NCBI GenBank assembly: GCA_037893245.1
Contig: JBAIAA010000433.1
Coordinates: 1,426,001-1,490,000 of the forward strand
DNA length: 64,000 nucleotides
Direction of reading: 5' to 3'
From: Crossaster papposus
Taxonomy: Eukaryota > Echinodermata > Asteroidea > Velatida > Solasteridae
The translations under genes and the position numbers were made by a program. How positions within the stretch are numbered: position 1 is the first letter of the stretch; every line of letters begins with the position of its first letter. Of the stretch, positions 26,058 to 57,327 are shown piece by piece. The notes beneath the pieces are model-generated. The model did not search any database and was not told where the DNA came from. It saw nothing but the letters and a program-made list of their open reading frames with translations.

Positions 26058-27990
26058 AACAAACAGAGAGACATCACAAGTTGGATGTTGATGCAACAAA
26101 GACAAATTCAGCCAAAGAACGGGCACATACGGGTATTTATCTGACGGGGATAATTAATGGCCTGAAAGTGAAATTTCTTCTAGACACTGGGTCAACGCAG
26201 ACTGTCTTATCTACAACTTCATTTCAGAAGCTACCCGATGATAGAAAGCCGATTTTAGAAACAATGGGGAGTAGCTTAAAGCAAGCCCACGGAACTCCGG
26301 TTGAGGCATGGGGACACAATGTTATGAATCTTCAAGTTGGAAAGAAGAGTCAGTCACTGGATATAACGGTTGCCGAGATTAGTGGTGAAGGAATCCTGGG
26401 AATGGAGTTTCTGCTAGCTTCTGGGGGAACTTTGAATTTCGACCAGCTTCAACTTAAAATAGAGGGCGAACAGATTGCATGCAGAGATGATAGCGACTTG
26501 CCACTGTGTGCGAGAGTAGTGGTAAGCAAGACAATTACTATACCGGCACGCCATGAGGCGGTAATGAAAGTGGAAACCTCGAGCCCTACAATGTTCAAAG
26601 GGTGTGGCATAATTGAACCAACGGGACGAGAAGAACTAATGAGGAGGGGACGAGAAGAACTAATGAGGAGAGCACTAATGCTGGCAAGAACACTAGTGTG
26701 TATGAAACCAAGTATGTTACCTGCCAGAATAATTAATATTACTGATGAGGAGCAAGTAGTGAGAGCGGGGACTGTCGTGGGCACAATTTCTCCTGCGCAA
26801 ACACATGATCAGACAATTCCAGTGAGCAATATAAGAGAACTACAGCCTGACGATAAGAAAAACGAAGCTGGAGTTCCCGAGTATTTGAACGACTTGTGCA
26901 CAAGAAGTTGCAAGGAGCTAGATGTAGAGCACCAATCACAAGTGAAGAAGATGCTGATTGACTTCCAAGATGTATTTTCAAGAGAAGACCACGACATAGG
27001 CCGCACCAATGCAGTCAAGCACAACATAAAAACTGGTAACGCAGCACCACTGCGTCAACCACCTAGAAGAGCTCCAATGGGGCAACAAGAGGAGATAAAC
27101 CGACAAGTAGGAGATTTGCTAGAGAGAAGACTTACCGAACCTTCCGACAGTCCATGGGCATCCTCAGTAGTCTTGGTGACAAAGAAGGATGGGTCAAAAC
27201 GGTTCTGTATCGACTATAGGAAACTTAATGCCGTGACCATCAAAGATGCGTATCCAATCCCTAGGATCGAAGAATCGTTGGACGCACTGTCGGGTTCAGA
27301 ATGTTTTAGTACTCTTGATCTGGCATCTGGCTACTGGCAGGTTGAGCTAGACGAGGAGGCAAGGGGAAAATCGGCTTTTACCGTGAGGGGAGGACTATAT
27401 GCGTGGAATGTAATGCCATTCGGGCTGTCCAACGCACCATCGACCTTTGAGAGACTAATGGAACGCATCATGGCTGGTCTACACTGGGACATTCTTTTAA
27501 TATACCTTGATGACATCATAGTGTATGGCAAGACGGAGACTGAGATGGCAGAACGGCTAAGAATAGTTTTTCAACGTCTGAGAAAGGCCGGACTCAAGCT
27601 GAAACCGAAAAAATGCCACTTATATCAACGAGAGGTATTGTACCTTGGTTATGTTGTTTCTGAGAAGGGTATTCATACAGACCCAGAGAAAATAAAGACG
27701 GTCAAGGAATGGCCGCGGCCGAAAGACGTAAGCGAAGTCCGGAGTTTTCTAGGCTTGGCTTCATACTACAGGAGATTCATAAAGAGTTTTGCAGACGTAG
27801 CACGGCCTCTTCATAAGTTGACAGAGAAGCATAGGGCATTCGAGTGGTCGGAGGAGTGCGAGGAAGGATTTTTGGAGTTGAAGAGTAGACTTATCTCATC
27901 ACCTATACTGGCGTATCCTGATCCAAGACTAGACTTCATTCTAGACACGGATGCTAGTAATTTTCCGACAGGAGCAGTACTTTCTCAGAT
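25916..27990 (+). pseudogene. Pol part of the Ty3/gypsy fossil (protease, reverse transcriptase, partial RNase H)
   Basis: An aspartic protease shows FLLDTGSTQTVLS. The reverse transcriptase shows KKDGSKRFCIDYRKLN, FSTLDLASGYWQ, MPFGLSNAPSTFERLM and the active-site LIYLDDIIVYG, followed by FLGLASYYRRFI. The RNase H start (FILDTDASN) is present. The family's integrase is absent. These motifs place it firmly in Ty3/gypsy. The open frame runs on past 27,990 into unrelated repeat DNA, and that tail is not pol. Confidence 0.9.
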
Positions 27991-28048
27991 AACTGGAAAC
28001 CCGTTGGCCCTTTTATTATGCTCTCAGAGCATTTTACCTTTGACTTGT
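27991..28048 (+). repeat. 58-bp fragment of the foldback-element arm
   Basis: Bases 27,991-28,048 match 7,106-7,163, the last 58 bp of the right arm of the 5,605-7,169 element, with essentially no differences. It abuts the end of the gypsy fossil on one side and a TTTATTTA simple repeat on the other. Confidence 0.85.
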
Positions 28049-29185
28049 TTATTATTTATTTATTTATTTATTAATAAACAATTCTTAAACTGGATAAAAA
28101 GATCAGCACAAGCTGTTTTACATCAATGTCTTGTGTACAGTTACACGCACAAGTCACTGCTTTCTAGCCGGTTTTTTTCTGAGGAAATTAGGGAAAATAA
28201 CTCAAAAATAATCAAACAATATAGGCATATTGGTTATTTACTTATTAAGTAGGCCTATCGTTAGGCCTAAATAACATGCTAGTTTTACAAGCGTGCAACT
28301 CGAATGTATTAAACAAAATGTTATTCAACGGACTCTGCAATTCGAACAACTTAAACCTCGATTTGTCGCCTTACTTTGAAGCTACAGGAAATAATAAAGC
28401 GTCCGTCCGCGAATGTGTATACACTAGACCATCAATTTACGTAACATCATATACATACGCCTAGCAGTAGCATCAAGAACGACTTACTTGTAAAATAACA
28501 TTCCATTTTCCCGACTCAATTGGACATCCTTCTCCGGGCACTTCACTGCTGCGCAGACCATAACCATTGCTCTTATCTATTTTAAACCATTCGGGTGCAA
28601 AATCCTCCAAAAATGACGAATTTTAGAAAACAAGTCTTCCACTTTAAAGGAAAAACTCCATAGGTCGTGCACAAACGCGGTCGCGTCACGTTTGTCCTTT
28701 ACCCTTAAAAAAAACCACGCGCGCGTACACCATTTAGACGCGACGGCCTATCCAGTCTATATAATGGAGATCAATGGGCGGATACAATTAATTTGCGAAG
28801 GCTTCGTGTAACGCAATAGCTGCCGTCCTTTCGCGAACAGCCAACAATTCGGCAACCGAGCAACGGGGTACGATTTCGGGAAGGCTTCGGCCCGAACTCC
28901 GGCAAGGATAATGCAAAAATCAACACACACATCAACAGGCAATCGAAAAGCGACTACACGTTTATCAATAACGTCTGTTTCTCCAAAATCTCACCACGGA
29001 CGATCTGGCGAACGTCGCGAACGATCTGGCACCCGCCGCACCGACGCCGGCGGCACACACGCACGGCGTCGAGTCGCCCGACCAAAAGCGCCGCGTCTTT
29101 TCAACATGGCGCCAACCATGCGCCGAGATGGCGCGGCCCTGTGTTTCAAGATTGTGGCGCCCAGGGACAAGATGGCGCATTTTTC
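28049..29185. other. Simple repeat, AT-rich, then GC-rich unassigned sequence
   Basis: TTATTTATTTATTTATTAATAAA lies at the left. From about 28,660 the sequence is CpG-richer and carries ATGGCGCC/GAGATGGCGC (YY1-like) motifs near 29,105-29,175 and the TATATAATGGAGATCAATG motif shared, inverted, with 349-375. It could be a promoter-like fragment, but no gene follows from it; the Ngaro-type fossil starts at ~29,186. Confidence 0.35.
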
Positions 29186-39506: not shown

Positions 39507-39795
39507 AGCTGTTTCGGCATTTCGGCCGAAACAGCTATTGTAATCGTTAATTATTTATTTTTTTTCCACTTTCAGACTTTTTTTCATAGGATTTGTACAC
39601 GTTTCGTTCAGCCAATACACTTTGACACTTTGGTAAATCCGATCGACTTGAAACTTGGCATACAATAAGAACACCACCCACAGATGGTCCTAGAAGAAAT
39701 TCGTCGCGATTACGCCATTCATGGTCACGTCACGTCAAGTTAAAGGTGCAACTTTTCCCCATAGGTTTTGTACACGTTTTCATCCAGACTATTTG
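39507..39795 (+). mobile_element. 5' fragment of the Helitron-like, CRE-minisatellite family
   Basis: It opens with the AGCTGTTTCGG...CCGAAACAGCT hairpin (39,507-39,534). Next come a T-rich tract, TTTGTACACG, TGACACTTTGGTAAATCCGA, and the start of a second unit. It stops at about 39,795, where a short dispersed repeat (shared with 15,160-15,215) begins. It is the same family as 44,784-56,185 but lacks the 3' terminus. Confidence 0.75.
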
Positions 39796-39850
39796 CACTG
39801 CGGCGAGTGAGGGCGCAAGATAAGATACTGTCAGTGTTAAGTCTGGTTTC
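39792..39850 (-). repeat. Short dispersed repeat, inverted copy of 15,160-15,215
   Basis: TGCACTGCGGCGAGTGAGGG and onward is the reverse complement of the block at 15,160-15,215. It begins exactly where the Helitron-like fragment ends. Confidence 0.6.
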
Positions 39851-42815
39851 GTCATGGCCGGACGTTTCCGTCTTCGCGGCCGGTCCGATAGCCAGCCTCG
39901 GGCCGTGTTTTATACTGCGGCATGGCAGCAACCCAGGATTCAAGAGAGGTCATTTCTGGGAAGGTTTATTTTGCCATCTCAGTAAAAGTCAATCGCGCTT
40001 GTGTTTGCGAGATTGGACATTTGTGCTAGTTTGAAGACCCTTTCTTGAATTGTATGGAGAAATGAGGTAGGATCAAACCACTTATTAATTTATTTGTTGG
40101 CGCAGCTCAAACTGAAGTAACCCTCCTTGAAAAGGGGCGTGTCGATTTGGTTTATGGAGCCGTGCTCTGAGACAATTGTATTCTTATAAAAGTGGAAATA
40201 TTCTTGTTTTACCTTACGTTTTGCGTTTGCTTCGGCAGAGTTTAGAAAATGTCTCCAGGGTGCGCCAGCATATAGGTTTGAAGCTTGCCATGCTTGGCAT
40301 GGAGCCTTCGTGCTAAAGATAACAATTTGTGCGGTAGGGAGTGGCAGCACTGATGCGTGGCAATGGAATGTGAGAGCACCACAATGGTCTATGCAAAATG
40401 GCTGGTCTACTTGTGTAATTAATTAGGGCCAGGAATGTAGGCTTTAATATGTCCAAATGAAGTTATGTTATTTATGCTACTAAATGTTTGCATACGTTTT
40501 CAGCAATGAATTTTTAAAAAAATAATAAAAATGATCACCCAGTAAGAGGTACGTCTCCTATCGCATTTAAAAATTCACATGTGTATTGAATTCATATAAT
40601 GCATATTTACGTAGAAATCGATATGCGATTGAATCAGGTGTATAGTATATTGCAGTTAGTTACATAACAGGCATATGCCGGTGTGTGGGCAACCCAATAG
40701 CACGCATGTGCATGCAGCCGTCTTTCTTTTCTATGTCCCTCTGGACGGCCGTCGGCTTTTGTTCCCAAAATGAGTGTTCCCGATCAATTCGCTTATTTAG
40801 TTTCTGGTTGGTTGAACGGGTCTGTTTGCTCCGTATTCAAATATCGTATAGTGCTCTTAGTGTAATCGGTGATCTTCGTTGATTGCTCTATTTCGGAGGG
40901 TGTTTTTCTACAGATCTGAGACCTATCGAGGGTAGCAATCTAATCGAGCCCCTCCAGGTATAAGTGGGTATGGTACTCGTTTATTTGCTAGGGCGGCAAG
41001 CATTCCCTTTATAAACCTTTACCCAGATAATTATAGGTTGTGTTTTATTTGGAACTCTGTGTTGAAATAATATATTTCCGCTACATATCTGTAGGAAAGC
41101 CCGTATAATCTAAATGTTGGGACTTTGGTGCTAATTCATAGTATGGGAATAAAATATCATAGTGCCTGGTGTGTGCTCTCGCATTGTATAATTATAGCCA
41201 GTCAGATTACAGCGTAGTCATTAATGAGGTACGCAGCGAAGTCTTGAGCGGGTTGGCGGCTTCGCAGCCGCAAAAATTCACGAGGTTTTGTGTGCACGGA
41301 GGAGTGCCCCGTATAATAGTAATGTTCTTTTTGGCAGTAGTTTTGGGCCAACACAGCGACTCTGACTGTTTCGGGATATTTTGAAGAAAAAACAGCCCAA
41401 AAAAACCACGTAAATTATAATGCATACACGTACCTGTTGTTGCATAACTTTGCTTTATGCTCACGTTTTGCATGTGATGTTTGTTTTCGATAGTCAGAGT
41501 GCCACATGTTCTGGTCGGGCGCCTTTGCTCTGGTATGGGGCAGGGGTTTTGACATGCAAATTGCCTTTGAGTTTACTATAGCAACGCATGTTTGGTCGGG
41601 GGTTAGATCGTTTTTGCTTTTGAGGTCATTACACTTGTAATGAGGCATTTATGTGCTTTTTGCGTGGCATTATTTTTATGAGCCTGCTTTCGGAATAGAA
41701 GACATTTTGAGTGTTCCTAATTGTTTTAGGTAACTAAAAAAGAACCACATATTTTGAAGATAGGTACTAAATCACATATCTTGTCACCAAACCGGCACAG
41801 TATTCTGCACAACTTTGTTTAGTAAGAAAAAAGGGTATTTCTTACCGACCATAAAATCAGACACAACAGTCATAGTTCTGTCCCTGTTTAAAAAAAAATA
41901 ATAATAATAATAATTGTTGATGAAAACTTGAAAAGTCTCTCTAAACAATAAGACGATACTAGTATGTTTAGCCCGTTTGTTGCAAACAATCGTCGTTAAA
42001 AAAAAACACCCCAAAACCAACCGTATTGAAATTGAAGCTTTTGGTATTGTTAGAGTCCAAGATCACTGCCGGTTATGTCAGCATGCGTTCACTTGCTAAG
42101 TGCCTCCTTCGACAGATGCATTTCAATCATAAATGTAAAATTGAACCCATGTGTTAAATATGATTGTGTATAATAATGCGATGCAACGGTTTTCAAATTT
42201 TTGGGAGGAAGCCATTTTATGCGCTATTTAAGCAGAAACTTATTCAAATTTCAAGCCTTGCTTATAGGGGTTTTACCCGGGAGAAACAGCCAAGGGGCAT
42301 GGTTTGTTTCAGGTCATTCCGCACAATATTATTGTGTCCTAAGACACGGACAAGCCGGCATGCGTAACCGCCATGGTCCGTCCCAGGACAGTGCCAATTT
42401 TGCATAGTAAGAAGGATCAGGTCCGCTCTAGGCAAGCCTTACACGTTCCAATTACAAAAAAGTTTACAAAGAAGTAAATTGTACGTTTTAAAAGGGGTCT
42501 CGATCGTCCCAGGGTACCCGGATCAGTATAGGAAATGAACCGTGTAGCTTGTGAGCAGCCTATAACAATATTTAGTCTCAGTACAGGAATTGTTAGCCTT
42601 GTTATAGATCTTCGATAGAAGATAACAATTATTGTGGGCAATTAACTTCTTTGTGGACCAAGGCTAATTTGATTATTTGATCGATTGAGAGTTTGGCCAT
42701 TGCTGTTTGGTCAACGCTGTTATATATAATATAACCCCGATAATTGATGGATGTCATTACCTTGCTTTTCATTTCCAATCTCGTTTCGGTCGGAGATGAT
42801 ATACCGTTATCTCAC
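39851..42815. other. ~3 kb without recognised genes or repeats
   Basis: I see no domain-bearing frame, no tandem array and no inverted ends. There is a short ATAATAATAATAATA run near 41,887. This is the longest apparently low-copy segment in the window and could be intronic or intergenic. Confidence 0.45.
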
Positions 42816-44054
42816 GGTACGAGAGTGGTTTTCAAGTTCAACTTCTGAGGTCTAAGGCCATTTGTGGTAAAGTTTTAAAATAGGCCGGTTAAGTTTAAAA
42901 CCTTTTTTCATTTGAAAACTTGGAGTCCAGTTTTTAATCAAATGTGGCATGTGTGATCGTGTCAAGGTGAGGTGTTGAGGTCAAAGTAATTTAAGGTCAG
43001 TGGTAAAAAGGTTTAAATTGTAACAATGGTCTTATTTGGGTTTTATCGCTTTGGGTAATACTGTATATAAATATGGGTGGCTAAGGGTGACAACGACGGT
43101 TTATGGAAGAAATACCAGAACAAAAAAAGACAAAGCAGAAAACGGAGGGGCAAACTAAAACACAAAATGGCATTGCATGGCAACAGACGACTCGGGCTAG
43201 AGAGAGATGAACAATTAGTGAAGTTGCTTTTCTCCCGCTGTGGAGAAAATAGAAATAATGGGAGTTTGCATGCGAGGGTGGTTTTAATAGTTGTAAGTAC
43301 GGTTCATTTGGCTTAATTGAAAAGGGATCCAAGTGCGTTGTCGGCGAACCCCTTGGCAAGTGCTCCATATCTCCGGTCAGACCTCGGGACTCTAAGCAAA
43401 TAGTCTGAGTATGTCAACAAGTCCAGCAACACTCTGTAAGTGTTTTGCACCCTTAAGATCCTTCCCCAGGAAAAGGTTTTTTACCTCGCAATATGTTAAG
43501 CGCGGAGGGTTTTGTTTTGTACCATCTGAAATTCTCCTCTTCGGTTTGGGACCTAAAGAGTGAGTTACGGCTCGTAGATGTTGGTAGCGTTATTGGTTTT
43601 TAAAATATCAGTTTGTCGATAGCGCCCTATTAGCGCGGCGTATCAGATTTAATCATGATTGTCCATAGTGAAGAGCTATAATGCATTCTTGTTGGCAGCA
43701 TTCGTGTTTTAGGATGGGCCTCAACAAAAAAAGGGGCCTTGAAATTCAAACAAAACGGGGAGTGGACCCTCAAATGAGTTTTAGCGCCTTGAGCAGCGTG
43801 TGCCTGTAACTTAGGCGGATGGCAGCCTCGCGGCACGTTTATTAGTGCTGGCAGTCTTATGAGTACAGTCATTTGAACGCATTTACGCGCGGAAATGATG
43901 CGCATTGCTGTTTAGTATCAGGTTCATCAGTCGGAGGACAGCTACTCCCAGTTACACGTTCGTGGCCCTTTTTGGTGGCGCGTATAATGCAGAAAGGCGT
44001 GACCGGCTTCTGTTTGTCGAGTTGTACTACAATGCACAATTTTACTCTAGACTA
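42816..44054. repeat. Head segment of the dispersed repeat family, copy 2
   Basis: It is collinear with 7,170-8,432 (TACGAGAGTGGTTTTCAA through TACTCTAGACTAGC), differing by small indels and scattered substitutions. It leads into the satellite without the LINE fragment present in copy 1. Confidence 0.75.
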
Positions 44055-44783
44055 GCGTGGTTAAGATCAGAGGACGGGCCTCTGCATAAGAGAGAACAGT
44101 GGATGGGTCCTGTGTGTTCAATTGTAATCTAACATGGTTAAGATAATAAGTTTTGCAGTGGACGGGCCCTGCGTTTTGGTTTTTAATCTATAGTGTAGTT
44201 AAGATCAGAGGATGAGAGATAATTATAAGTTACGCAGCGGACGCGCCCTGTGTGCTGAATTTAAATATAACACTGTTAAGATCAGACGATAAGAGAGAAT
44301 GTAAGTTACGCAGTGGACAGGCTCTGTGTGTGTTGAATTTAAATCTAGCAATGGTTAAGATCAAAGGATAAGAGAGAATAAAAGTAACGCAGTGAATGGG
44401 CCATGCGTGTTGAATTTAAATCTAACATTGTTAAGATTATAGAATAACAGAAATTAGAAGTTGCGAAGTGGATGGGCCCTGCATGTTAAATTTAAATCTA
44501 ACATTGTTAAGATTATAGAATAAGAGGAATTAGAAGTTGCGCAGTGGATGGGCCCTGCGTGTTGAATTTAAATCTAACATTGTTAAGATTATAGAATAAG
44601 AGGAATTAGAAGTTGCGCGGTGGATGGGCCCTGCGTGTTGAATTTAAATCTAACATTGGTAAGATTATAGAATAAGAGGAATTAGAAGTTCCGCAGTGGA
44701 TGGGCCCTGCGTGTTAAATTTAAATCTAACATTGTTAAGATTATAGAATAAGCGGAATTAGAAGTTGCGCAGTGGATGGGCCC
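44055..44783 (+). repeat. ~85-88-bp satellite array, copy 2 (about nine units)
   Basis: Same unit as 8,989-13,070. The unit at about 44,140 keeps the uninterrupted site corresponding to the SINE insertion in copy 1. The last five units are almost identical to each other. The array ends abruptly in GGATGGGCCC, where the Helitron-like modules begin. Confidence 0.9.
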
Positions 44784-45327
44784 GGGATGTGTTATAGACA
44801 AAAATTAAGATGACATCACGATGACGTCATCGGGTGTCATGTGACGTCACATTAAAGGCGCAGTTTTCCCTATAGGTTTTGTATACGTTTTTCGTCAGAC
44901 TATTGAATTTGACACTTTGGTAAATCCAATGGACTCGAGACTTAGTACACACCTCGACCACCATCTCTAGGAGGGCCACAAGGATAATCGTCATGATGAC
45001 GTCATCGTGGGTCATGTGACGTCACTTTAAAGGTGTAGTTTTTAAGACCCTCTATCTCTGGAAGTAAAGGTCTGATTGGGGTCAAACTTGGTATGCAAGT
45101 ATTCCAGGATGTGTTATAGACGAAAATTAAGATGACGTCATGACGACGTCATCGTGGGCCATGTGACGTCACATTAAAGGTGCAGCTTTCCCAATAGGAT
45201 TTGTACACGTATTTTTCAACCAATTAACTTGGGTAAATCAGATCGATTTCAGACTTGGCACACACATAATAAAGGTCATCTTAGACACCCGAAACAGCTC
45301 TGTGTTTGTCCACAAACACATTTCTAG
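44784..45327 (+). mobile_element. Helitron-like module 1 (5' end missing)
   Basis: It starts inside a unit (GGATGTGTTATAGAC) directly after the satellite and contains three minisatellite units with ATGACGTCAT and ATGTGACGTCACATTAAAGG. It ends with CGAAACAGCT, the TGTGTTTGT/ACAAACACA hairpin and CTAG at 45,324-45,327, the layout of a Helitron/Helentron 3' terminus. Confidence 0.7.
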
Positions 45328-45377
45328 TTTTTTTAGCTGTTTCGGTTTTTCACCGAAACAGCTTTTGTTTTCGTTAA

Positions 45378-45409
<32 letters not shown>

Positions 45410-45871
45410 CCACTTTTAGACTTTTTCCCATAGGATTTGTACACGTTTTTTCAGCCAATACACTTTGACACTTTGGTAAATCCGATCGACTTGAGACTTG
45501 GCATACATTTAGACAACCACCCAAAGACGGTCCTAGAAGAAATTCGTCGCGATTACGTCATTCAAGGTCATTCTTCAGAAATCAATATAAAATCAACTGT
45601 AAGAGATCCGATTTAGATTTTTACAGTAATTGATAGAATAATCTATGGTCTTCATATTTCGTATACCATGCAAAATAATTTGACCCTTCCTTCCGGTCTA
45701 AACCGGAAGTGCCTGAAAATTAACCGTGAGAGGTATGATCAATTACTTTCTTTTTCAATTTTTATTTTGTATACAATGAAAATTAAATGAACAGAATCAT
45801 AAATGTAATGAACAATGAACAAAAAATGCGAAAAAGCCATATGCTCTGTTCATAGAACAGACATATTTCTA
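45328..45871 (+). mobile_element. Helitron-like module 2
   Basis: A 5' AGCTGTTTCGG hairpin starts at 45,335, followed by GTTTTCGTTAAAG, a 34-base T-rich tract and one minisatellite unit. About 290 bp of other sequence follows. It ends with a different hairpin (TCTGTTC/GAACAGA, 45,845-45,861) and CATATTTCTA, a variant 3' terminus. Confidence 0.6.
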
Positions 45872-46896
45872 TTTTTTTTTTTTTTTTTTTCCCCCTCTGT
45901 TTCAGACTCTTCTGTATAGGGTTTGTACACGTGTTTCTTCTGCCAATACACTTTGACACTTTAATAAATCCGATCTATTTGAAACTTGGCATACACTTAG
46001 ACTACCACCCACAGATGGTCCTAGAAGAAATTCGTAACGATTACGTCATTCATGGTCACGTGACGTCACGTTAAAGGTGCAATTTTTTCCCATAGGTTTT
46101 GTACACGTTTTCCTTCAGACTATTGACTTTGACACTTCGGTACATCCGATTGACTTTAGACTTAGTACACAACTCAACCACTATCCTCAGGAGGGCCAAG
46201 AGAAAAATCGTCATGATGACGTCATCGGGGGTCATGTGACGTCACATTAAAGGTGCAGTTTGTAGGACCCTCTATCTCTGGAAGTACAAGTCCGATTGGG
46301 GTCAAACTTGGTATTCATGTATTCCAGGATGACTTATAGACGAAAATTAAAATGACATCATGATGACGTCATTGGGTGTCATTTGACGTCAAATTAAAGG
46401 TCAAATTCTTTCCATACGATTTGTACACGGTTTTTTTTAACCAATATATCTTTGGCACTTTAGTTTATTCGATCGACTTTAGACTTGGAACACACTTAGA
46501 CCACCCCAATATTGAAAGGAGGGTCAAGAGGAAAATCGCCATGATGACATCATCGGGGGTCATGTGACGTCACATTAAAGGTCCAGTTTTTAAGACCCTC
46601 TATCTCTGGAAGTACAGGTCCGATTGGGGTCAAACTTGGTATTCATGTATTCCAGGATGACTTATAGACGAAAATTAAAATGACATGATGACGTCATCGG
46701 GTGTCATGTGACGTCACATTAAAGGTCAAATTCTTCCCATATGATTTGTACACGTTGTTTTTTCAACCAATATATCTTTGGCACTTTGGTTTATTCGATC
46801 GACTTTAGACTTGGAACACACTGAGACCACCCCAATATTGAAAGTCATTTTAGACATGCGAAACAGCTCTGTGTTTGTCCACAAACACATTTCTAG
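45872..46896 (+). mobile_element. Helitron-like module 3
   Basis: It begins with a T tract and no 5' hairpin. It carries six or so minisatellite units of both types (CTTGGCATACACTTAGA type and CCTCTATCTCTGGAAGTACA type), each closed by a GTGACGTCACNTTAAAGGT block. It ends with the standard 3' hairpin and CTAG at 46,893-46,896. Confidence 0.7.
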
Positions 46897-46952
46897 TTTC
46901 TTTTTAGCTGTTTCGGTTTTTCACCGAAACAGCTTTTGTTTTCGTTAAAGTT

Positions 46953-46999
<47 letters not shown>

Positions 47000-47707
47000 C
47001 CACTTTCAGACTTTTTCCCATAGGATTTGTACACGTTTTTTCAGCCAATACACTTTGACACTTTGGTAAATCCGATGGACTTGAGACTTGGCATATACTT
47101 AGACAACCACCCAAAGACGGTCCTAGAAGAAATTCGTCGCGATTACGCCATTCAAGGTCACGTGACTTTGCGTTAAAGGTTAAATTTTTCCCATAGGTTT
47201 TGTACACGTTTTTCTTCACACTATTGACTTTGACACTTTGGTACATCCGACCGACTTGAAACTTGGCATACACTTAGAACATCACCCACAGATGGTCTTG
47301 GAAGTAATTCGGCACGATTGCGTCATTCAAGGTCACGTAACGTCAAGTTAAAGTTTCAATTTTTTCCCCCATAGGTTTTGTACACGTTTTTCTTTAGACT
47401 ATGACTTCGACACTTTCGTAAATTTGATCGACTTGAGACTTGGCACACACTTAGAACATCACTCATATATGGTTCTGGAAGAAATTCGGCACGATTGCGT
47501 CATTCAAGGTCACGTGACGTCACGTTAAAGGTTCAATTTGTCCCCCATAGGTTTTGTACACGTTTTTCTTTAGACTATTGACTTTGACACTTTCGTAAAT
47601 TTGATCGACTTGAGACTTGGCACACACATAGACCACCACACACACATATTGAAAATAATGTAAGACACTCGAAACAGCTCTGTGTTTGTCCACAAACACA
47701 TGTCTAG
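46897..47707 (+). mobile_element. Helitron-like module 4
   Basis: It has both ends: the AGCTGTTTCGG hairpin from 46,906 and a terminal hairpin with CTAG at 47,704-47,707. The 5' T-rich tract is ~48 bases. The units are all of the AGACTTGGCATACACTTAGA type. At ~810 bp it is one of the more complete modules. Confidence 0.75.
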
Positions 47708-49035
47708 TTCTTTTTTGTCATCTCCCCCATAGGATTTGTACACGTTTTTTTCAGCCAATACACTTTGACACTTTGGTAAATCCGATCGACTTGAAACTTG
47801 GCATATACTTAGACAACCACCCAAGGACAGTCCTAGAACAAATTCGTCGCGATTCCATCATTCAAGGTCACGTGACGTCATGTTAAAGGTACAATTTTCC
47901 CCATAGGTTTTGTACACGTTTTTCTTCAAGCTATTGACTTTGACACTTTGATGAATCCGTTCGACTTAAGACTTAGCATACACTTAGAACACCACCCACA
48001 GATGGTCCTGGACGAAATTCGGCACGATTTGCGTTATTCAAGGTCACGTGACGTGACGTTAAAGGTGTACATTTTGTTCCCATAGGGTTTGTACACGTTT
48101 GTCTTCAGACTATTGACTTTGACACTTTCGTACATTTGATCGATTCGAGACTTAGCACACATCTCGACCACCATCCCCAGGAGGGCCAAGGGGAAAATCG
48201 TCATAATGACGTCATCGTGGGTCATGTGACGTAACATTAAAGGTGCAGTTTTTAGGACCCTCTATCTCTGGAAGTACAGGTCCGATTGGGGTCAAACTTG
48301 GTATTCATGTATTCCAGGATGAGTTATAGACAAAAATTAGATGACATTATGATGACGTCATCGGGTGTCATGTGACGTCACATTAAAGGTGCAGTTTTTA
48401 GGACCCTCTATCTCTGGAAGTACAGGTCCGATTGGGGTCAAACTTGGTATTCATGTATTCCACGATGAGTTATAGACAAAAATTAGATGACATTATGATG
48501 ACGTCATCGGGTGTCATGTGACGTCACATTAAAGGTGCAGTTTATAGGACCCTCTATCTCTGGAAGTACAGGTCCGATTGGGGTCAAACTTGGTATTCAT
48601 GTATTCCACGATGAGTTATAGACAAAAATTAAGATGACATTATGATGACGTCATCGGGTGTCATGTGACGTCACATTAAAGGTGTAGTTTTTAAGACTCT
48701 ATATCTCTGGAAGTACAAGTACAATTAGGGTCAAACTTGGTATTCAGGTATTCCGGGATGTGTTATAGACGACAATTGAGTTGACGTCATGATGACGTCA
48801 TCAGGTGTCATGTGATGACGTCATGATGACGTCATCAGGTGTCATGTGATGTCACATTAAAGGTGTAGTTTTCCCCATAGGATTTGTACACGTTTTTTGC
48901 AACCAAGATATATTTGGCACTTTGGTAAATCCGATCGACTTCAGATTTGGTACACACATAGACCACCACTCACATATTCAAAGTCATTTTAGACATGCGA
49001 AACAGCTCTGTGTTTGTCCACAAACACATTTCTAG
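47708..49035 (+). mobile_element. Helitron-like module 5
   Basis: It lacks the 5' hairpin. 48,250-48,690 holds three nearly identical ~146-bp units (CCTCTATCTCTGGAAGTACA ... GTGACGTCACATTAAAGG), a fresh expansion. Near 48,782-48,850 two ATGACGTCATGATGACGTCA blocks stand in tandem. It ends with CTAG at 49,032-49,035. Confidence 0.72.
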
Positions 49036-49085
49036 TTAGCTGTTTCGGCAATTCAGCCGAAACAGCTATTGTTTTTGTTAAAGTT

Positions 49086-49117
<32 letters not shown>

Positions 49118-50459
49118 TTTCCACTTTCAGACTTTTTCTCATAGGATTTGTACACGTTTTTTCAGCCAATACACTTTGACACTTTGGTAAATCCGATCGA
49201 CTTGAGACTTGGCATACATTTAGACAACCACCCAAAGACGGTCCTAGAAGAAATTCGTCGCGATTACGCCATTCAAGGTCACGTGACTTCGCGTTAAAGG
49301 TGAAATTTTTCCCATAGGTTTTGTACACGTTTTTCTTCAGACTATTGACTTTGATACTTTAGTAAATCCGACTGACTTGAAACTTGGCATACCATTAGAA
49401 CACCAACCCTTAGATGTTCCTGAAAGACATTCGACACGATTGCGCCATTCAAGGTCACGTGACGGCACGTTAAAGGTTTAATTTTTCCTCCATAGGTTTT
49501 GTACACGTTTTTCTTTAGACTATTGACTTTGACACCTTGGTAAATCCGATGGACTTGAGACTTGGCATACACTTAGACAACCACCCAAGGACGGTCATAT
49601 AAGAAAATCGTCGCGATTACGTCATTCAAGGTCACGTGACTTCGCGTTAAAGGTGAAATTTTCCCCATAGGTTTTGTACACGTTTTTCTTCAGACTATTG
49701 ACTTTGACACTTTGTTAAATCCGATTGACACAAAACTTAGTACACACCCCAACCACCTTCCTCAGTAGGGCCAAGAGGAAAATTGTCATGATGACGTCAT
49801 CGGGGGTCATGTGACGTCACATTAAAGGTTCAGTTTTTAAGACCCTCTACCTCTGGAAGTACATGTCCGATTGGGGTCAAACTTAGTATTCAGGTATTCC
49901 AGGATGAGTTATAGACGAAAATTAAAATGTCATCATGATGACGTCATCGGGTGTCATGTGACGTCACATTAAAGGTGTAGTTTTTAGGACCCTCTATCTC
50001 TGGAAGTACATGTCCGATTAGGGTCAAACTTGGTATTCAGGTATTCCGGGATGTGTTATAGACAAACATTAAGATGATATCACGATGACGTCATCGGGTG
50101 TCACATGACGTCACATCAAAGGTGTAGTTTTTAGGACCCTCTATCTCTGGAAGTACATGTCCGATTGGGGTCATACTTGGTATGCAAGTAATCGGGGATG
50201 TGTTATAGACGAAAATTAAGATGACGTAATTATGACATCATCGTGGGTCATGTTACGTCACATTAAAGGTGTAGTTTTCCCCAAAGGATTTGTCCACGTT
50301 TTTTTTCAACCAATATATCTTTGGCACTTGGGTAAATCAGATTGACTTCAGATTTGCGACACACTTAGACCACCACCCACTTCTTACAAAACAAATTAAT
50401 AAATAAATAAAAATTAGACACCCGAAACAGCTCTGTGTTTGTCCACAAACACATTTCTA
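49036..50459 (+). mobile_element. Helitron-like module 6
   Basis: It begins two bases (TT) after the previous CTAG with AGCTGTTTCGG (49,038), so the join reads CTAG-TT-AGCTG with nothing else between. It contains a ~40-base T-rich tract and seven or more CRE-bearing units, and ends with the usual hairpin and a CTAT variant of the terminus. Confidence 0.75.
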
Positions 50460-51476
50460 TTTTTTTTTTTTTTTTCTTTTTCAGCATTTTCTCCATAGGA
50501 TTTGCACACGTTTGTTCAGACAATACACTTTGACACTTTGGTAAATCCGATAGACTTGAGACTTGGCATACACTTAGACAACCAACCAAGGACGGTCCTA
50601 GAAGAAATTCGTCGCGATTACGTCATTCAAGGTCACGTGACGTCATGTTAAAGGTAAAATTTTCCCCATAGGTTTTGTACACGTTTTTCTTCAGACTCTT
50701 GACTTTGACACTTTGGTATATCCGACCGACTTGAAACGTGGTATATACTTAGAACACCACCCACAGATGGCTCTTGAAGAAATTCGGTACGATTGCATCA
50801 TTCAAGGTCACGTGACGTGACGTTAAAGGTGCAATTTTTTTCCCCATAGGGTTTGTACACGTTTTTCTTCAGACTATTGACTTTGACACTTTCGTAGACT
50901 TGATCGACTTGAGACTTAGCACACACCTCGACCACCATCTCCAGGAGGGCCAAGGGTAAAATCTTCATGATGACGTCATCGGGGGGTCACGGCACGTCAC
51001 ATTAAAGGTTCAGTTTTTAGGACCCGCTATCTCTGGAAGTACAGGTCTGATTGGGGTCAAACTTGGTATGCAAGTATTCCAGGGTGTGTTATAGACGAAA
51101 AATAAAATGACATCATGATGACGTCATCGTGGGTCATGTGACGTCACATTAAAAGTCCAGTTTTTAGGACCCTCTATCTCTAGAAGTACATGTCCGATTG
51201 GGGTCAAACTTGGTATGCAAGTATTCCAGGATGTGTTACAGACGAAAATTAAGATGACATCATGATGACATCATCGGGTATCATGTGACGTCACATTAAA
51301 GGTTCAAATTTCCCCATAGGATTTGTACACGTTTTTTTAACTAATATATATTTGGCACTTGTGTAAATCCAATCGACTTCAGACTTGGCACACACATAGA
51401 CCACCACACACACATATATTGAAAGTAACGTTAGACAATCGAAACAGCTCTGTGTTTGTCCACAAACATATGTCTA
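50460..51476 (+). mobile_element. Helitron-like module 7
   Basis: A T tract takes the place of the 5' hairpin. It holds mixed-type minisatellite units and ends CGAAACAGCT, hairpin, GTCTA (51,474-51,476). Confidence 0.68.
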
Positions 51477-52359
51477 TTTTTTTTTTTTTTTTTTTTTTTT
51501 TTTTCCACTTTCAGTGTTTTTACCCATAGGATTTACACACGTTTGTTCTGCCAATACACTTTGGCACTTTGCTAAATCCAATCGACTTGAGACTTGGTAT
51601 ACACTTAGACCTCCACCCACAGATGGTCCTAGAAGAAATTTGGCTCGATTGCGTCATTCAAGGTCACGTGACGTCACGTTAAAGGTTTAATTTTCCCCAT
51701 AGGTTTTGTACACGTTTTTCTTCAGACTATTGACTTTGGCACTTCGGTAAATCCGACCGACTTGAAACTTGGCATACACTTAGAATACCACCCCCAAATG
51801 TTTCTGAAATAAATATGGCACGATTGCGTCATTCAAGGTCACGTGACGTGAAATTAAAGGTGCATTTTTTTTCCCCATAGGGTTTGTACACGTTTTTCTT
51901 TAGACTATTGACTTTGACACTTTCGTGAATTTTATCGACTTTAGACTTAGCACATAACTCGACCACCCTCACCAGGAGGGCCAAGGGAAAAATCGTAATA
52001 ATGACGTCATCGTGGGTCATGTGACGTCACATTAAAGGTTTAGTTTTAAGGACCCTCTATCTCTAGAAGTACATGTCCGATTGGGGTCAAACTTGGTATG
52101 CAAGTATTCCAGGATGTGTTACAGACGAAAATTAAGATGACATCATGATGACATCATCGGGTATCATGTGACGTCACATTAAAGGTTCAATTTTTCTCCA
52201 TAGGATTTGTACATGTTTTTTTCAACTATTTTATCTTTTGCACTTGTGTAAATCCAATCGACTTCAGACTTGGCACACACATAGACCTATAGCACACATA
52301 TTGAAAGTAACGTTAGACAGTCGAAACAGCTCTGTGTTTGTCCACAAACACATGTCTAG
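51477..52359 (+). mobile_element. Helitron-like module 8 (has an inverted twin)
   Basis: A T tract and then units beginning CATAGGATTTACACACG. It ends with CTAG at 52,356-52,359. Almost the whole module is repeated in reverse complement at 55,128-55,985 with few differences. Confidence 0.75.
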
Positions 52360-53381
52360 TTTTTTTTTTTTTTCCTTCTGTTTCAGACTATTTTCCATAG
52401 GATTTGTACACGTATTTTTTTCAGCCAGTACACTTTGGCACTTTGGTAGATCCGATCGACTTGAGACTTTGCATACTCTAAGACCACCACCCACAGATAG
52501 TCCTAGAAGAAATTCGTAACGATTACGTCATTCATGGTCACGTGACGTCACGTTAAAGGTGCAATTTTTTCCCATAGGTTTTGTACACGTTTTTCTTCAG
52601 ACTATTGACTTTGACACTTTGGTAAATCCGATTGACTTTAGACTTAATATAAACCTCAACCACCATCCTCAGGAGGGCCAAGAAGAAAATCGTCATGATT
52701 ACGTCATCGGGGGTCATGTGACGTCACGTTAAAGGTGCAGTTTTTAGGCCCCTTTATCTCTGGAAGTACAGGTCCGATTGGGGTCAAACTTGGTATTCAT
52801 GTATTCCAGGATGAGTTATAGACAAAAATTAGATGACATTATGATGACGTCATCGGGTGTCATGTGACGTCACATTAAAGGTGCAGTTTATAGGACCCTC
52901 TATCTCTGGAAGTACAGCTCCGATTGGGGTCAAACTTGGTATTCATGTATTCCAGGATGAGTTATAGACAAAAATTAAGATGACATTATGATGACGTCAT
53001 CGGGTGTCATGTGACGTCACATTAAAGGTGCAGTTTATAGGACCCTCTATCTCTGAAAGTACATGTCCGATTCGGGTCAAACTTCTTATACAGGTATTCC
53101 GGGATGTGTTATAGACGACAATTTGGATGACGTCATGATGACGTCATCAGGTGTTATGTGATGACGTCATGATGACGTCATCAGGTGTCATGTGATGTCA
53201 CATTAAAGGTGTAGTTTTCCCCATAGGATTTGTACACGTTTTTTGCAACCAAGATATATTTGGCACTTTGGTAAATCCGATCGACTTCAAATTTGGTACA
53301 CACATAGACCACCACTCACATATTCAAAGTCATTTTAGACATGCGAAACAGCTCTGTGTTTGTCCACAAACACATTTCTAG
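52360..53381 (+). mobile_element. Helitron-like module 9
   Basis: T tract start. 52,740-53,100 repeats the expanded ~146-bp unit seen in module 5, and the doubled CRE block and 3' part also match module 5 (48,700-49,035). The two modules therefore share a recent ancestor. CTAG is at 53,378-53,381. Confidence 0.72.
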
Positions 53382-54193
53382 TTAAATTTTGTTTTTGTTT
53401 TTTTCTTTTACCTCTGTTTCAGACTTTTCTTCAGCCAATACACTTTGACACTTTGGTAAATCCGATCGACTTGAGAGTTGTCATACACTTAGACCACCAC
53501 CCAAAGATGGTCCTAGAAGAAATTCGTAACGATTACGTCATTCATGGTCACGTGACGTCACGTTAAAGGTCCAAATTTCCCCCATAGGTTTTGTACACGT
53601 TTTTCTTCAGACTATTGACTTTGACACTTTAGTAAATCCGACCGACTTGAAACTTGGTATACACTTAGAACACCATCCCCAGATGTTCCTGAAAGAAATT
53701 CGGCACAATTGCGTCATTCAAGGTCACGTGACGTCACGTTAAAGGTTCAATTTTTCCCCCATAGGTTTTGTACACGTTTTTCTTTAGACTATCGACTTTG
53801 ACACTTTCGTAAATTTGATCGACTTGAGACTTAGCACACATCTCGACCATCATCCCCAGGAGGGCCAAGAAAAACAATTGTCATAATGACGTTATCGTGG
53901 GTCATGTGACGTCACATTAAAGGTGCAGTTTTAAGGACCCCCCTATCACTGGAAGTACAGGCCCGATTGAGGTCAAGCTTGGTATGCAAGTATTTCAGGA
54001 TGTGTTAGACGAACAAATTAAGATGACATCATGATGACATTATCGGGTGTCATATGAAGTCACATTAAAGGTGCAATTTTTCCCATAGGATTTGTACACG
54101 TTTTTTTCAACTAATATATCTTTGGCACTTGTGTGAATCCAATCGACTTTAGACTTGGCACACACATAGACATGTACACAAACATATTAAAAA
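53382..54193 (+). mobile_element. Helitron-like module 10 (3' end missing)
   Basis: Plus-oriented units run to about 54,190, but the terminal CGAAACAGCT/hairpin/CTAG is absent. Instead the next 3' terminus appears in reverse complement, so this is the point where orientation flips. Confidence 0.68.
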
Positions 54194-55127
54194 CTAGACA
54201 TGTGTTTGTGGACAAACACAGAGCTGTTTCGGATGTCTAAGATAACTTTCATTATGTGTGTGCCAAGTCTGAAATCGATTGGATTTGTCAATTTTCCCAA
54301 GATATATAAGTTGAAAAATACGTGTACAAATCCTATGGGAAAAACTGCACCTTTAAAGTGACGTCACATGACACCCGATGATGTCATCATGATGTCATCT
54401 TAATTTTCGTCTATTACACATTCTGGAATACTTGCATACCAAGTTTGGCCCCAATCAGACATGTACTTCCAGAGATAGAGGGTCCTAAAATCTGCCCCTT
54501 TAATGTGACGTCACATGACACCCGATGATGTCATAATTACGTCATCCTATTTTTTGTCTATAACACATCCTCGAATACTTGCAAACCAAGTTTGACCCCA
54601 ACCGGACTTGTACTTTCAGAGTTAGACGGTCTTAAAAACTACACCTTTAATGTGACGTCACATGACACCCGATGATGTCATAATTACGTCATCTTAATTT
54701 TCGTCTATAACACATCCTCGAATACTTGCAAACCAAATTTGACCCCAATCGGACGTGTACTTCCAGAGATAGAGGGTCTTAAAAACTGCACCTTTTGTGT
54801 AACGTCACATGACCCACGATGACGTCATCATGACGATTTTTCCCCTGGACCTCCTGGGGATGGTGGTCGAGGTGTGTGCTAAGTTTCAAGTCAATCGGAT
54901 TCACCAAACTGTCAAATTAAATACGGGGGAAAATTGCACCTTTAACGTGACGTCACGTGACCAAGAATTATGTAATCGCGACGAATTTGTTCTAGGACCG
55001 TCCTTGGGTGGTTGTCTAAATGTATGCCAAGTCTCAAGTCGATCGGATTTACCAAAGTGTCAAAGTGTATTGGCAGAAAAAACGTGTACAAATCCTATGG
55101 GAAAAAGTGACCAAAAAAATAAATAAA
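54194..55127 (-). mobile_element. Helitron-like module 11, inverted
   Basis: It starts (in window coordinates) with CTAG at 54,194-54,197 and the hairpin ACAAACACA block in reverse, followed by AGCTGTTTCGG. Units run on the minus strand (AATGTGACGTCACATGACAC). It ends against the CTAG of module 12 at 55,128. Confidence 0.7.
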
Positions 55128-56057
55128 CTAGACATGTGTTTGTGGACAAACACAGAGCTGTTTCGACTGTCTAACGTTACTTTCAATATGTGTGCTATAG
55201 GTCTATGTGTGTGCCAAGTCTGAAGTCGATTGGATTTACACAAGTGCAAAAGATAAATTAGTTGAAAAAAAACATGTACAAATCCTATGGAGAAAAATTG
55301 AACCTTTAATGTGACGTCACATGATACCCGATGATGTCATCATGATGTCATCTTAATTTTCGTCTGTAACACATCCTGGAATACTTGCATACCAAGTTTG
55401 ACCCCAATCGGACATGTACTTCTAGAGATAGAGGGTCCTTAAAACTAAACCTTTAATGTGACGTCACATGACCCACGATGACGTCATTATTACGATTTTT
55501 CCCTTGGCCCTCCTGGTGATGGTGGTCGAGTTATGTGCTAAGTCTGAAGTCGATAAAATTCACGAAAGTGTCAAAGTCAATAGTCTAAAGAAAAACGTGT
55601 ACAAACCCTATGGGGAAAAAGATTGCACCTTTAACTTCACGTCACGTGACCTTGAATGACGCAATCGTGCCATATTTATTTCAGAAACATCTGGGGGTGG
55701 TATTCTAAGTGTATGCCAAGTTTCAAGTCGGTCGGATTTACCGAAGTGCCAAAGCCAATAGTCTGAAGAAAAACGTGTACAAAACCTATGGGGAAAATTA
55801 AACCTTTAACGTGACGTCACGTGACCTTGAATGACGCAATCGAGCCAAATTTCTTCTAGGACCATCTGTGGGTGGAGGTCTAAGTGTATACCAAGTCTCA
55901 AGTCGATTGGATTTAGCAAAGTGCCAAAGTGTATTGGCAGAACAAACGTGTGTAAATCCTATGGGTAAAAACACTAAAAGTGGAAAAAAAAAACAAAAAA
56001 AAAAAAAAAACTTTAACGAAAACAAAAGCTGTTTCGGTGAAAAACCGAAACAGCTAA

Positions 56058-56089
<32 letters not shown>

Positions 56090-56131
56090 AACGAAAACAA
56101 AAGCTGTTTCGGCTGAAAGGCCGAAACAGCT
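55128..56131 (-). mobile_element. Helitron-like module 12, inverted, with a duplicated 5' end
   Basis: CTAG is at 55,128-55,131 and the body is the inverted twin of module 8. Its 5' end is doubled: hairpins at 56,027-56,055 and 56,102-56,131, each followed (minus strand) by GTTTTCGTTAAA and a poly-T tract. Unlike module 8 it retains the 5' hairpin, so it shows what the full 5' end of this subfamily looks like. Confidence 0.75.
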
Positions 56132-56185
56132 AATAATGTTAGACACTCGAAACAGCTCTGTGTTTGTCCACAAACACATGCCTAG
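56132..56185 (+). mobile_element. Isolated plus-strand 3' terminus of the Helitron-like family
   Basis: TTAGACACTCGAAACAGCTC, the TGTGTTTGT/ACAAACACA hairpin and CTAG (56,182-56,185) close the whole array. With the inverted modules before it, this gives the block plus-oriented ends on the outside. Confidence 0.75.
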
Positions 56186-56658
56186 TTTCATTTGTATTGG
56201 TTTTGGTAATCATATAAAACATAAATTTTCTCGCACTGCGCTTACTGTCATGCGAGCCGCCATTTTGTTCTGGTTTATCGGTACACATGAGATAATGAGA
56301 TAGTGTCTGTACAATCAGTACGCGAAGCCCGACCGATAGCGGACCTGCACGCGCAAGGAATGCAAGTGAACCCTTGTGTGTACGGCATAGTGCATACAAA
56401 ATGTGAACTAAAGTAGGCTCAAAATCATACGGCGAAGTACCTGATGCCATATTTACTAGCTCACAGAAAACACAACAATAAACGATAGTTTGTGGCGCGT
56501 CAAGTCGATATTCTGCACAGAAATGCAATACATGTACTCGCAATAGTCGGGCGCGGTACAACATACGTATGCACAATGTAGTTGGCCGCGTCAAGGTAGG
56601 ATACCAGTGCGAACAACACGCAATAAAGCGATGTGCATTGAGGTGCAGACACTACGTC
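56186..56658. other. No gene seen
   Basis: Mixed sequence between the Helitron-like array and the large inverted-repeat element. A minus-strand open frame of ~150 codons (56,139-56,594) starts in repeat DNA and has no domain signature. Confidence 0.4.
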
Positions 56659-57327
56659 ATAATAGTTGGGTCCAAAACATAAGTTCCGTGACCATTCTCT
56701 GGCTAGGATGGTTTAACGATGGATTTGACTTCTATGGACCATTTATAAAGAAATTAGCCCCCCGGTCCCTCCCAAAAATACCGGCATTTTTCGCTAGAGG
56801 GCCAAATCCAAGATGGCCGCCGGCGCCAACTTGGAAAATTAAGGTTTGAACCAGAGCACCTAGAATTATGTCTGAAAACACTTTTTCGGGTAAGTGGATC
56901 CCGAGGATTCCGATTCCGACATCGGTTTGACAATATGACATCAATTTGACCCAGAAATCCAAGATGGCCGCCATCTGATAGAGGAAAAACATATTTTTTT
57001 GAAAGGGAACACCTAGAAACATGAATGAACACATTGGGCTGTAACTACGAAAGCTGTTTATCTTTATGCGAGTGTAGTATATAGACGTGGATAAATCCAA
57101 GTTACACGCGTCTTCCTAAACACCTGAATTAAACAACTCTTACTAAATATCTTAAATGGTTGTTTAGTTATCCTCGTGTAACTTGATAGTCTAAACTTAT
57201 TGACCGTGGTCCCTATTGTTAAATACATTGCAATATAGAGGATTGCGCAACAGTATAAACATACGATATGCCTCAGTAGATAAATCTCCAGCAGGTCTTT
57301 ACTTAGATACTCTACAGCCTGAGCCAT

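What the first reader, a model, noticed from the sequence alone, without database searches (positions are those of the whole stretch)
44784..56185. 11.4-kb block of CRE-palindrome minisatellites carried between Helitron-like ends
Every ~145-175-bp unit ends in a GTGACGTCAC or GATGACGTCATC palindrome, so the block holds dozens of consensus cAMP-response-element/ATF sites. The units are bounded by ends that look like Helitron/Helentron termini: a 5' AGCTGTTTCGG hairpin and a 3' CGAAACAGCT, 9-bp-stem hairpin and CTAG. A mobile element that spreads arrays of perfect transcription-factor sites could act as a portable enhancer, a protein sponge or a fragile cruciform. I do not know of a named family with this design.
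Basis: partly seen in the sequence, partly recalled or inferred. Interest (0 to 1): 0.85.

Follow-up and report, generated by a model that had tools for sequence, protein, structure and literature searches.

The report
Self-nesting Helentrons carrying CRE-site arrays
The block is a pile of small rolling-circle transposons that insert into each other; their repeats carry most copies of one perfect 10-letter cAMP-response (CRE) palindrome in this 1-Gb genome, but nobody has yet shown that any protein binds them.

Summary
The palindrome-rich array and its two kinds of ends are real. The 11.4-kb block is not one element but a stack of copies of a non-autonomous Helentron (HINE), with 9 plus-strand and 2 minus-strand 3' termini. 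Single copies elsewhere have the same ends (TT|AGCTGTTTCGG-hairpin ... 3' hairpin-CTAG|T). Empty sites were read for three other loci, and a collinear 98-99%-identical contig (C381) lacks the minus-strand nest; all five insertions so tested added the element plus two Ts at a T run. The assembly holds about 10,700 3' termini. Each copy has a T tract just inside its 5' end, and about 2,000 places show another 5' end in such a tract, so copies nest in the same direction. The central repeats are two related units (about 173 and 146 bp) sharing one CRE box; 24,761 of 34,768 GTGACGTCAC in the genome (71%) lie in that box. The CRE is the most intact 8-mer of the short unit but only above average in the long one. 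Architecture and mobility are those of known HINE/pearl elements; the CRE load and the T-tract self-nesting are the unusual parts. Binding, enhancer action and the autonomous partner remain unshown.

The parts
39507..39800 (+). Separate copy outside the block: 5' hairpin, T-rich stretch and about 1.3 long (A) units, no CRE; none of the 3'-end words searched occurs in 39537-44100
44784..45327 (+). Copy e1, 5' part missing; starts inside a B unit at the border with a 76-bp satellite; 3' end CTAG at 45327
45333..46896 (+). Copy e2, complete (TT + 5' hairpin at 45335, T tract, A and B units, 3' hairpin, CTAG); holds about 300 bp that match no unit near 45575-45870
46904..47707 (+). Copy e3, complete
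47708..49035 (+). Copy e4: T-rich start, A and B units and 3' end; no 5' hairpin next to it (as expected for an outer copy of a nest)
49036..50460 (+). Copy e5, complete, joined to e4 by TT; 3' end reads CTAT
50461..51477 (+). Copy e6: T tract, body, 3' end (CTAT), no adjacent 5' hairpin
51478..52359 (+). Copy e7: T tract, body, 3' end, no adjacent 5' hairpin
52360..53381 (+). Copy e8: T tract, body, 3' end, no adjacent 5' hairpin
53382..54193 (+). Copy e9, left piece; the right piece with its 3' end is 56132-56185
   Evidence: uninterrupted in contig C381
54194..55127 (-). Outer minus-strand copy, body and 3' end (CTAG at 54194)
55128..56055 (-). Inner minus-strand copy, complete, inserted in the T tract of the outer one
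56056..56131 (-). Outer minus-strand copy, 5' hairpin and first part of its T tract
   Evidence: the whole 54194-56131 nest is absent from C381
56132..56185 (+). Right piece of e9 with its 3' subTIR, hairpin and CTAG
48391..48536 (+). Example of the short (B) unit with both palindromes
47361..47532 (+). Example of the long (A) unit with a GTGACGTCAC

Best explanation
A high-copy family of non-autonomous Helentrons (HINE type), moved in trans by a Helentron Rep/helicase. SHOWN: reproducible ends; insertion at T runs adding the element plus TT (five insertions); about 10,700 copies of the 3' terminus; two consecutive central arrays (A then B units) closed by a half A unit; same-direction nesting into the T tract just inside the 5' end, which builds multi-copy blocks like this one; the central CRE box accounts for 71% of the genome's GTGACGTCAC. 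INFERRED: (a) rolling-circle transposition by a partner protein, from kinship of the ends (about 0.9); (b) loss of most 5' hairpins in big stacks by recombination between the T tracts (about 0.5); (c) the CRE box is kept because a bZIP factor (CREB/ATF/CREM type) binds it and helps the element, for example by keeping it open or transcribed in germ cells (about 0.3). The confidence given is for the element identity and the nesting mode, not for (c).
For: Isolated copies with the same ends (L042, L045, L046, L054; the loop of the 5' hairpin varies). Empty sites: 9 places for L046, 30 for L045 and one for the C3:1524k pair (40 of 928 candidates scored); nine of these 40 read and aligned, consistent with element plus TT per insertion. 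The window's minus nest is absent from C381, 98.4% identical to its left and 99% to its right, and collinear to window 63200 apart from a 129-bp length difference. Counts: 3' terminus 10,702 against 0 reversed; exact 5' signature 4,683 against 0; 5' end inside another's T tract 2,000 against 0. Of 17 strand-runs of ends in the 15 merged stretches, 9 are balanced like brackets: (), (). GTGACGTCAC 34,768 against 1,179 reversed; 24,761 in the box GTGACGTCACRTTAAAGG; 90.8% of 27,258 GTGNNNNCACRTTAAAGG carry ACGT. A and B consensus agree at 21 of 23 bases in the CRE box against 94 of 135 aligned columns overall. Helentron machinery is present: 150 scored Rep-domain matches, one 3,142-aa open frame whose pieces match OTU, Rep, PIF1 and endonuclease domains.
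Against: No Rep/helicase element with these ends was found: the C215 region (18 kb), 2.5-kb 3' flanks of 12 other copies and 10 kb beside a C17 copy show none, though the true ends of those elements were not located and may lie beyond. The two extra Ts fit a 2-bp duplication or Ts of the element. 8 of 17 strand-runs are not balanced: three are cut by the fetched edge, two are single-ended (L001, L061), two involve duplicated 3' ends, and this block's plus strand has 4 5' ends (one outside the block) for 9 3' ends. So the 2,000 nestings are not 2,000 independent events, and the assembly may hold both haplotypes in places, which inflates counts. On CRE function: in A units the CRE ranks only 21st of 166 8-mers (32nd without the window), and TTGTACAC is better kept.
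Confidence: 0.88

Rival explanations
1. The CRE palindromes are passengers: the element is a HINE as above, the unit happened to contain GTGACGTCAC when it was captured, and copy number did the rest. No factor binds them to any effect.
For: Only 38 of 65 units in the block keep one of the two palindromes of 10 or 12 bp. In A units other 8-mers are kept better, and the ACGT core given intact flanks ranks 30th of 97. The monomers of most oyster HINE clusters are unrelated to each other in sequence (PMC7492417, Results).
Against: In B units TGACGTCA is the most intact of 139 8-mers (0.85 against a median of 0.56; 0.88 against 0.52 in the 33 units outside the window). It lies in the best-matching stretch shared by the two diverged units. 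Units within an array are not independent, and the search profile was seeded with window units cut at TTAAAGGT, so this is suggestive only.
Confidence: 0.55
2. Blocks grow as rolling-circle concatemers (the end signal is read through, giving head-to-tail copies) or by plain tandem duplication rather than by nested insertion.
For: Head-to-tail joins with 2-9 nt T-rich spacers (45327/45335, 46896/46906, 49035/49038); 3' ends exactly 3,452 bp apart in L070; PMC7492417 mentions tandem whole elements (introduction passage); 8 of 17 strand-runs are not balanced.
Against: A run of five 5' ends 52-65 bp apart, 3' ends joined straight to another copy's T tract and body, and balanced nests are what nesting predicts; 2,000 places with a 5' end in another's T tract.
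Confidence: 0.2
3. An ordinary satellite array with chance similarity to Helitron ends.
For: The block is dense, and copies cluster on some contigs (for example C3, C17, C18).
Against: Single copies in unrelated flanks, empty sites, zero matches to the reversed termini.
Confidence: 0.02
4. Fragile cruciform or structure-forming array: the palindromes act through DNA structure.
For: Units contain 10-12-bp palindromes; [quoted passage not shown]
Against: Two B units fold little better than shuffles (z -0.92 and -1.09); 10-12-bp palindromes are short for extrusion (general knowledge).
Confidence: 0.05

Closest known systems
HINE (non-autonomous Helentrons), Thomas et al. 2014, PMC4067079 (passages and one section seen)
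   Same: Subterminal inverted repeats, inverted repeat next to the 5' one (DINE-1 type), 3' hairpin, T-rich target with at least two Ts on each side, empty sites without clear duplication, tandem repeats in some copies.
   Different: Here the central repeats are two consecutive arrays with a CRE box, there are about 10,700 3' ends, and a T tract inside the 5' end is a frequent landing site for further copies. No partner sharing the ends was found.
Cg_HINE_10_13 and Cg_HINE_11_12 of the Pacific oyster, PMC7492417 (Results in full, other passages)
   Same: Two arrays of satellite-like monomers in consecutive order between HINE ends; TT target; partner also not identified there.
   Different: The words 'nested' and 'transcription factor' do not occur in that paper's main text.
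pearl / DTC84 elements of bivalves (Gaffney 2003 not seen; as described in passages of PMC5139131 and PMC7492417)
   Same: About 160-bp central repeats between conserved ends; in DTC84 a conserved palindrome near the repeat junction.
   Different: Arrays of up to six units described; letters of the DTC84 palindrome not seen; host of this window unknown.
ISX of Drosophila miranda (PMC4384637, search listing and passages)
   Same: A Helitron-type element that spreads a binding motif across a genome.
   Different: ISX supplies 77 sites with shown binding on one chromosome; here there are about 24,800 sites genome-wide and no binding data.

Membership tests
HINE (non-autonomous Helentron) | Identical subterminal inverted repeats of about 11 bp | tested here: met
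   AGCTGTTTCGG / (C)CGAAACAGCT, 10-11 bp depending on the copy; genome-wide 22,648 AGCTGTTTCGG against 137 reversed
HINE (non-autonomous Helentron) | Inverted repeat beside the 5' subTIR (5' hairpin) | tested here: met
   12-bp stem, -13.2 kcal/mol, z -10.65
HINE (non-autonomous Helentron) | Hairpin near the 3' end | tested here: met
   GTGTTTGT..ACAAACAC, z -2.94, 4 of 200 shuffles as good; 10,702 copies of the terminus
HINE (non-autonomous Helentron) | Insertion at TT / T runs, no clear target duplication | tested here: met
   Five insertions at four loci against empty sites, each with two extra Ts (one base substitution at the window site); PMC4067079 reports at least two Ts on each side and cannot assign them
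HINE (non-autonomous Helentron) | No transposase of its own; central tandem repeats | tested here: met
   No match of seven Rep-bearing proteins in the window or the end-bearing loci; 65 repeat units in the block
HINE (non-autonomous Helentron) | Autonomous Helentron sharing the ends | tested here: inconclusive
   Rep/PIF1/endonuclease Helentrons exist; longer stretches beside 14 of 150 scored copies (13 of one score group, 1 of another) lack the end words, but their own ends were not located
Canonical Helitron | 5' TC, 3' CTRR, insertion between A and T | tested here: not met
   3' CTAG fits, but the 5' end is (TT)AGCTG and the target is a T run
Ordinary satellite DNA | Only long local arrays without transposon ends | tested here: not met
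   Isolated copies and empty sites
Regulatory element spread by a transposon (ISX-like) | Protein binding and effect on genes | not testable with these tools
   Needs ChIP, CUT&RUN or ATAC data

The most novel reading that the evidence does not exclude
A self-nesting Helentron family has installed about 24,800 consensus CREs, 71% of all GTGACGTCAC in the genome, and bZIP factors do occupy them: the family is a distributed CREB/ATF binding system that the element uses for its own germ-line activity and that the host either exploits as enhancers or must titrate against.
Probability: 0.15. Interest if true: 0.85.

Novelty: new variant of a known kind. Interest (0 to 1): 0.55.

Why it matters
It gives a clean case in which one transposon family supplies most copies of one perfect transcription-factor palindrome in a genome of 1 Gb, so the question whether transposon-borne sites act as enhancers, sinks or nothing becomes testable with one CUT&RUN experiment. 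It also shows a simple way for dispersed elements to turn into satellite-like blocks: a T-tract landing pad inside each copy that accepts the next copy in the same direction.

Tried and rejected
Autonomous partner: Rep-domain search of the genome (273 candidates, 150 scored), then the end words sought in the C215 region, in 2.5-kb 3' flanks of 12 other copies of the same score group, and in 10 kb beside a C17 match: none found. Tandem repeats run to or near the edge of several of those flanks, so the elements' own 3' ends may not have been reached.

Same 3' terminus in other collections: 0 in viral contigs and 0 in prokaryote genome contigs. Rfam over 44001-57000: 0 matches at gathering threshold. 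The host species was not determined.

Are all CRE palindromes HINE-borne? No. On contig C1 9 of the 32 listed GTGACGTCAC sites are in the box. The 71% is genome-wide and uneven between contigs.

A probe from the window's left side (40001-40900) is an interspersed repeat and did not place C381.

Papers: PMC7492417 abstract and Results in full plus passages; PMC4067079 passages and one section; PMC5139131, PMC11136912 and PMC4384637 passages only. Searches for a printed link of CRE/CREB sites with satellite or Helitron repeats (3 of 3 papers listed; 20 of 83; 12 of 837) and for Helitron nesting in T tracts (6 of 6): no listed title or abstract start describes this; the lists are capped, the papers listed there were mostly not opened, and subscription journals are mostly not held.
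Full report
WHAT IS IN THE WINDOW. The block 44784-56185 (11,402 bp) holds 64 TGACGTCA, of which 32 lie in GTGACGTCAC; GATGACGTCATC occurs 19 times. The other 52.6 kb of the window hold 3, 1 and 0, and a Markov control of the block averages 0.4 TGACGTCA. A profile built from the block's own units finds 65 units or part units: 31 with GTGACGTCAC, 18 with GATGACGTCATC, 38 with either, 42 with TGACGTCA. So the motif is a regular part of the units but not present in each one.

Two related unit types occur. The long A unit (consensus 173 bp from 141 near-full units) ends in TCAAGGTCACGTGACGTCACGTTAAAGGT, the short B unit (146 bp, 54 units) in GTGTCATGTGACGTCACATTAAAGGT. Within a copy the usual order is 5' hairpin, T tract, A units, B units, a half A unit, 3' end. 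The two consensus sequences agree at 94 of 135 aligned columns, and best over the last 23 bases before the final T with 21 of 23.

THE BLOCK IS A STACK OF COPIES. Plus-strand 3' ends lie at 45327, 46896, 47707, 49035, 50460, 51477, 52359, 53381 and 56185 (50460 and 51477 end in CTAT); plus-strand 5' hairpins at 45335, 46906 and 49038. A minus-strand nest runs from 56131 to 54194, with an inner complete copy (56055-55128) inside the T tract of the outer one. The left edge is a break inside a B unit next to a 76-bp satellite.

ENDS AND MOBILITY. In the whole genome (1.02 Gb, 1,841 contigs) the 3' terminus occurs 10,702 times with at most one mismatch, against 0 for the reversed pattern. Four copies stand alone in unrelated flanks with the same ends (L042, L045, L046, L054). 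Joined flanks of five sites (L042, L046, L045, L054 and the C3:1524k pair) were searched: 40 of 928 candidates were scored, giving 30 empty places for L045, 9 for L046 and 1 for the C3 pair; L042 and L054 gave none among those scored. Nine of the 40 were read and aligned: four for L046, four for L045, one for the pair. The minus-strand nest of the window is absent from contig C381, which matches window 53745-54193 at 98.4% and then runs straight on into the same 3' end and right flank. C381 stays collinear at 99% to window 63200, with a 129-bp length difference on the way, so it is the other haplotype or a recent duplicate. In all five insertions so tested (the C3 place holds two) the filled site equals the empty site plus element plus two Ts, with one base substitution at the window site. 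This is what the HINE paper describes: at least two Ts on each side that cannot be assigned to element or target (PMC4067079, section 6).

HOW BLOCKS GROW. Just inside the 5' hairpin copies carry TTTTGTTTTCGTTAAAG or a variant and then a T tract, 30-50 bases in the three plus-strand copies of the block that have a 5' hairpin. The exact 27-base 5' signature occurs 4,683 times, and a new 5' end lies at most 17 bases into such a tract 2,000 times, against 0 for each reversed pattern. I sorted the ends in the 15 merged stretches (14 fetched and the window part) into 17 runs by strand; the hairpin matches itself on both strands, and its direction was judged by eye from the following bases. Nine runs are balanced like brackets: four single copies, one adjacent pair, three double nests (one of them the window's minus strand) and one (). 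Eight are not. C3:1758k plus, C3:1785k and C5:3667k are cut by the fetched edge. L001 has a 5' end without a 3' end, and L061 a 3' end without a 5' end, within 1.5 kb. C3:1905k and L070 contain duplicated 3' ends. The window plus strand has 4 5' ends (one at 39507, outside the block) for 9 3' ends. I infer that T tracts recombine and drop 5' hairpins; this step is not shown. Because a T tract offers TT on one strand only, nested copies point the same way, which yields satellite-like blocks. Tandem duplication adds to this, so the number of independent nestings is below 2,000.

THE CRE LOAD. GTGACGTCAC occurs at 34,768 places, its reversed word (which has no CpG, so it is a loose control) at 1,179. 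24,761 of the 34,768 (71%) are followed by RTTAAAGG, the box these units carry, with 0 in the control. That each of these lies in a HINE copy was not checked one by one. Of 27,258 places that match GTGNNNNCACRTTAAAGG (control 32), 24,761 (90.8%) have the ACGT core. The distribution is uneven: on C1 only 9 of 32 listed sites are in this context, and ten other C1 loci read have no unit similarity (0 of 10). Some of those look like inverted-repeat elements with a CRE at each end (L087-L089).

IS THE CRE KEPT BY SELECTION? In 54 near-full B units TGACGTCA is intact in 85%, first of 139 8-mers (median 56%); without the window 88% of 33 units, still first (median 52%); weighted by locus 94% against 62%. 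In 141 A units it is intact in 55% (median 38%), 21st of 166, and 32nd of 166 in the 112 units outside the window. With 3 and 11 flanking bases intact, the ACGT core is intact in 32 of 32 B units (first of 56 positions) but in 83% of 36 A units (30th of 97). TTGTACAC, at 86% of A units, is kept best there. Units of one array are related, and the profile was seeded from window units cut at TTAAAGGT, so these ranks are descriptive. The picture fits modest constraint on B units, or a young master copy, and does not prove binding. A units also carry TCAAGGTCA and GTCACGTGAC, recalled as nuclear-receptor-type and E-box-type words; not tested.

MACHINERY. The genome has 150 scored Rep-domain matches of 273 candidates; 136 of the 150 score 123.7-131.3 bits and many of these have open frames of 3,000 aa or more. 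One copy read has a 3,142-aa open frame; its pieces match PHD, OTU, Rep, PIF1 helicase and an endonuclease/exonuclease domain, the Helentron set. The end words of the present family were not found in its 18-kb region or in 2.5-kb 3' flanks of 12 other copies, but the ends of those elements were not located. The partner is therefore not identified, as also in the oyster study (PMC7492417, passage).

VERDICT. A HINE by the structural tests that could be made, with the partner missing. Carrying a satellite is not new. I found no account, in the capped listings, of the amount of a perfect transcription-factor palindrome spread by such an element or of T-tract self-nesting that builds blocks. Whether any protein reads the sites is open.

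Noticed in passing
L087, L088, L089 (contig C1, 878198-1019069): Other repeats carry GTGACGTCAC near both ends of what looks by eye like an inverted repeat (sites 104, 168 and 180 bp apart), unrelated to the HINE units; several transposon families in this genome may own this palindrome.
   Followed up: partly
L071/L072 (C215:467500-485499) and one search list: 136 of 150 scored Rep matches fall in one score group, many with open frames of 3,000-3,470 aa (one read: PHD, OTU, Rep, PIF1, endonuclease). C215 and C388 are identical over 2.5 kb of 3' flank, so a young family or haplotype copies.
   Followed up: partly
several of L073-L084 (3' flanks of those Helentrons): Self-matches show tandem repeats with periods of roughly 65-100 bp after the open frame, so arrays belong to several Helentron lineages here.
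   Followed up: no
window 44148-44783, 9438-10180, 11367-13064: A 76-88-bp satellite without TGACGTCA; one array abuts the block at 44783/44784 at a break inside a B unit.
   Followed up: no
L070 (C18:1826500-1836499): Three HINE 3' ends exactly 3,452 bp apart; the first interval holds about 1.8 kb of other sequence with a 121-aa open frame.
   Followed up: partly
L105 (C381:723637-724936): An A-unit fragment followed abruptly by other sequence with a 154-aa frame that looks THAP-like by eye (no domain search made).
   Followed up: no
C198 and C636: Rep matches lie in mirrored order at nearly the same spacings on the two contigs, so the assembly seems to hold both haplotypes in places; genome-wide copy counts may be inflated.
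   Followed up: no
window 25356-28252: Gypsy-like retrotransposon remnant: zinc knuckle, aspartic protease, reverse transcriptase.
   Followed up: partly
window 45575-45870: Stretch of about 300 bp inside copy e2 that matches no unit, followed by a second T tract and body start without a 5' hairpin.
   Followed up: no
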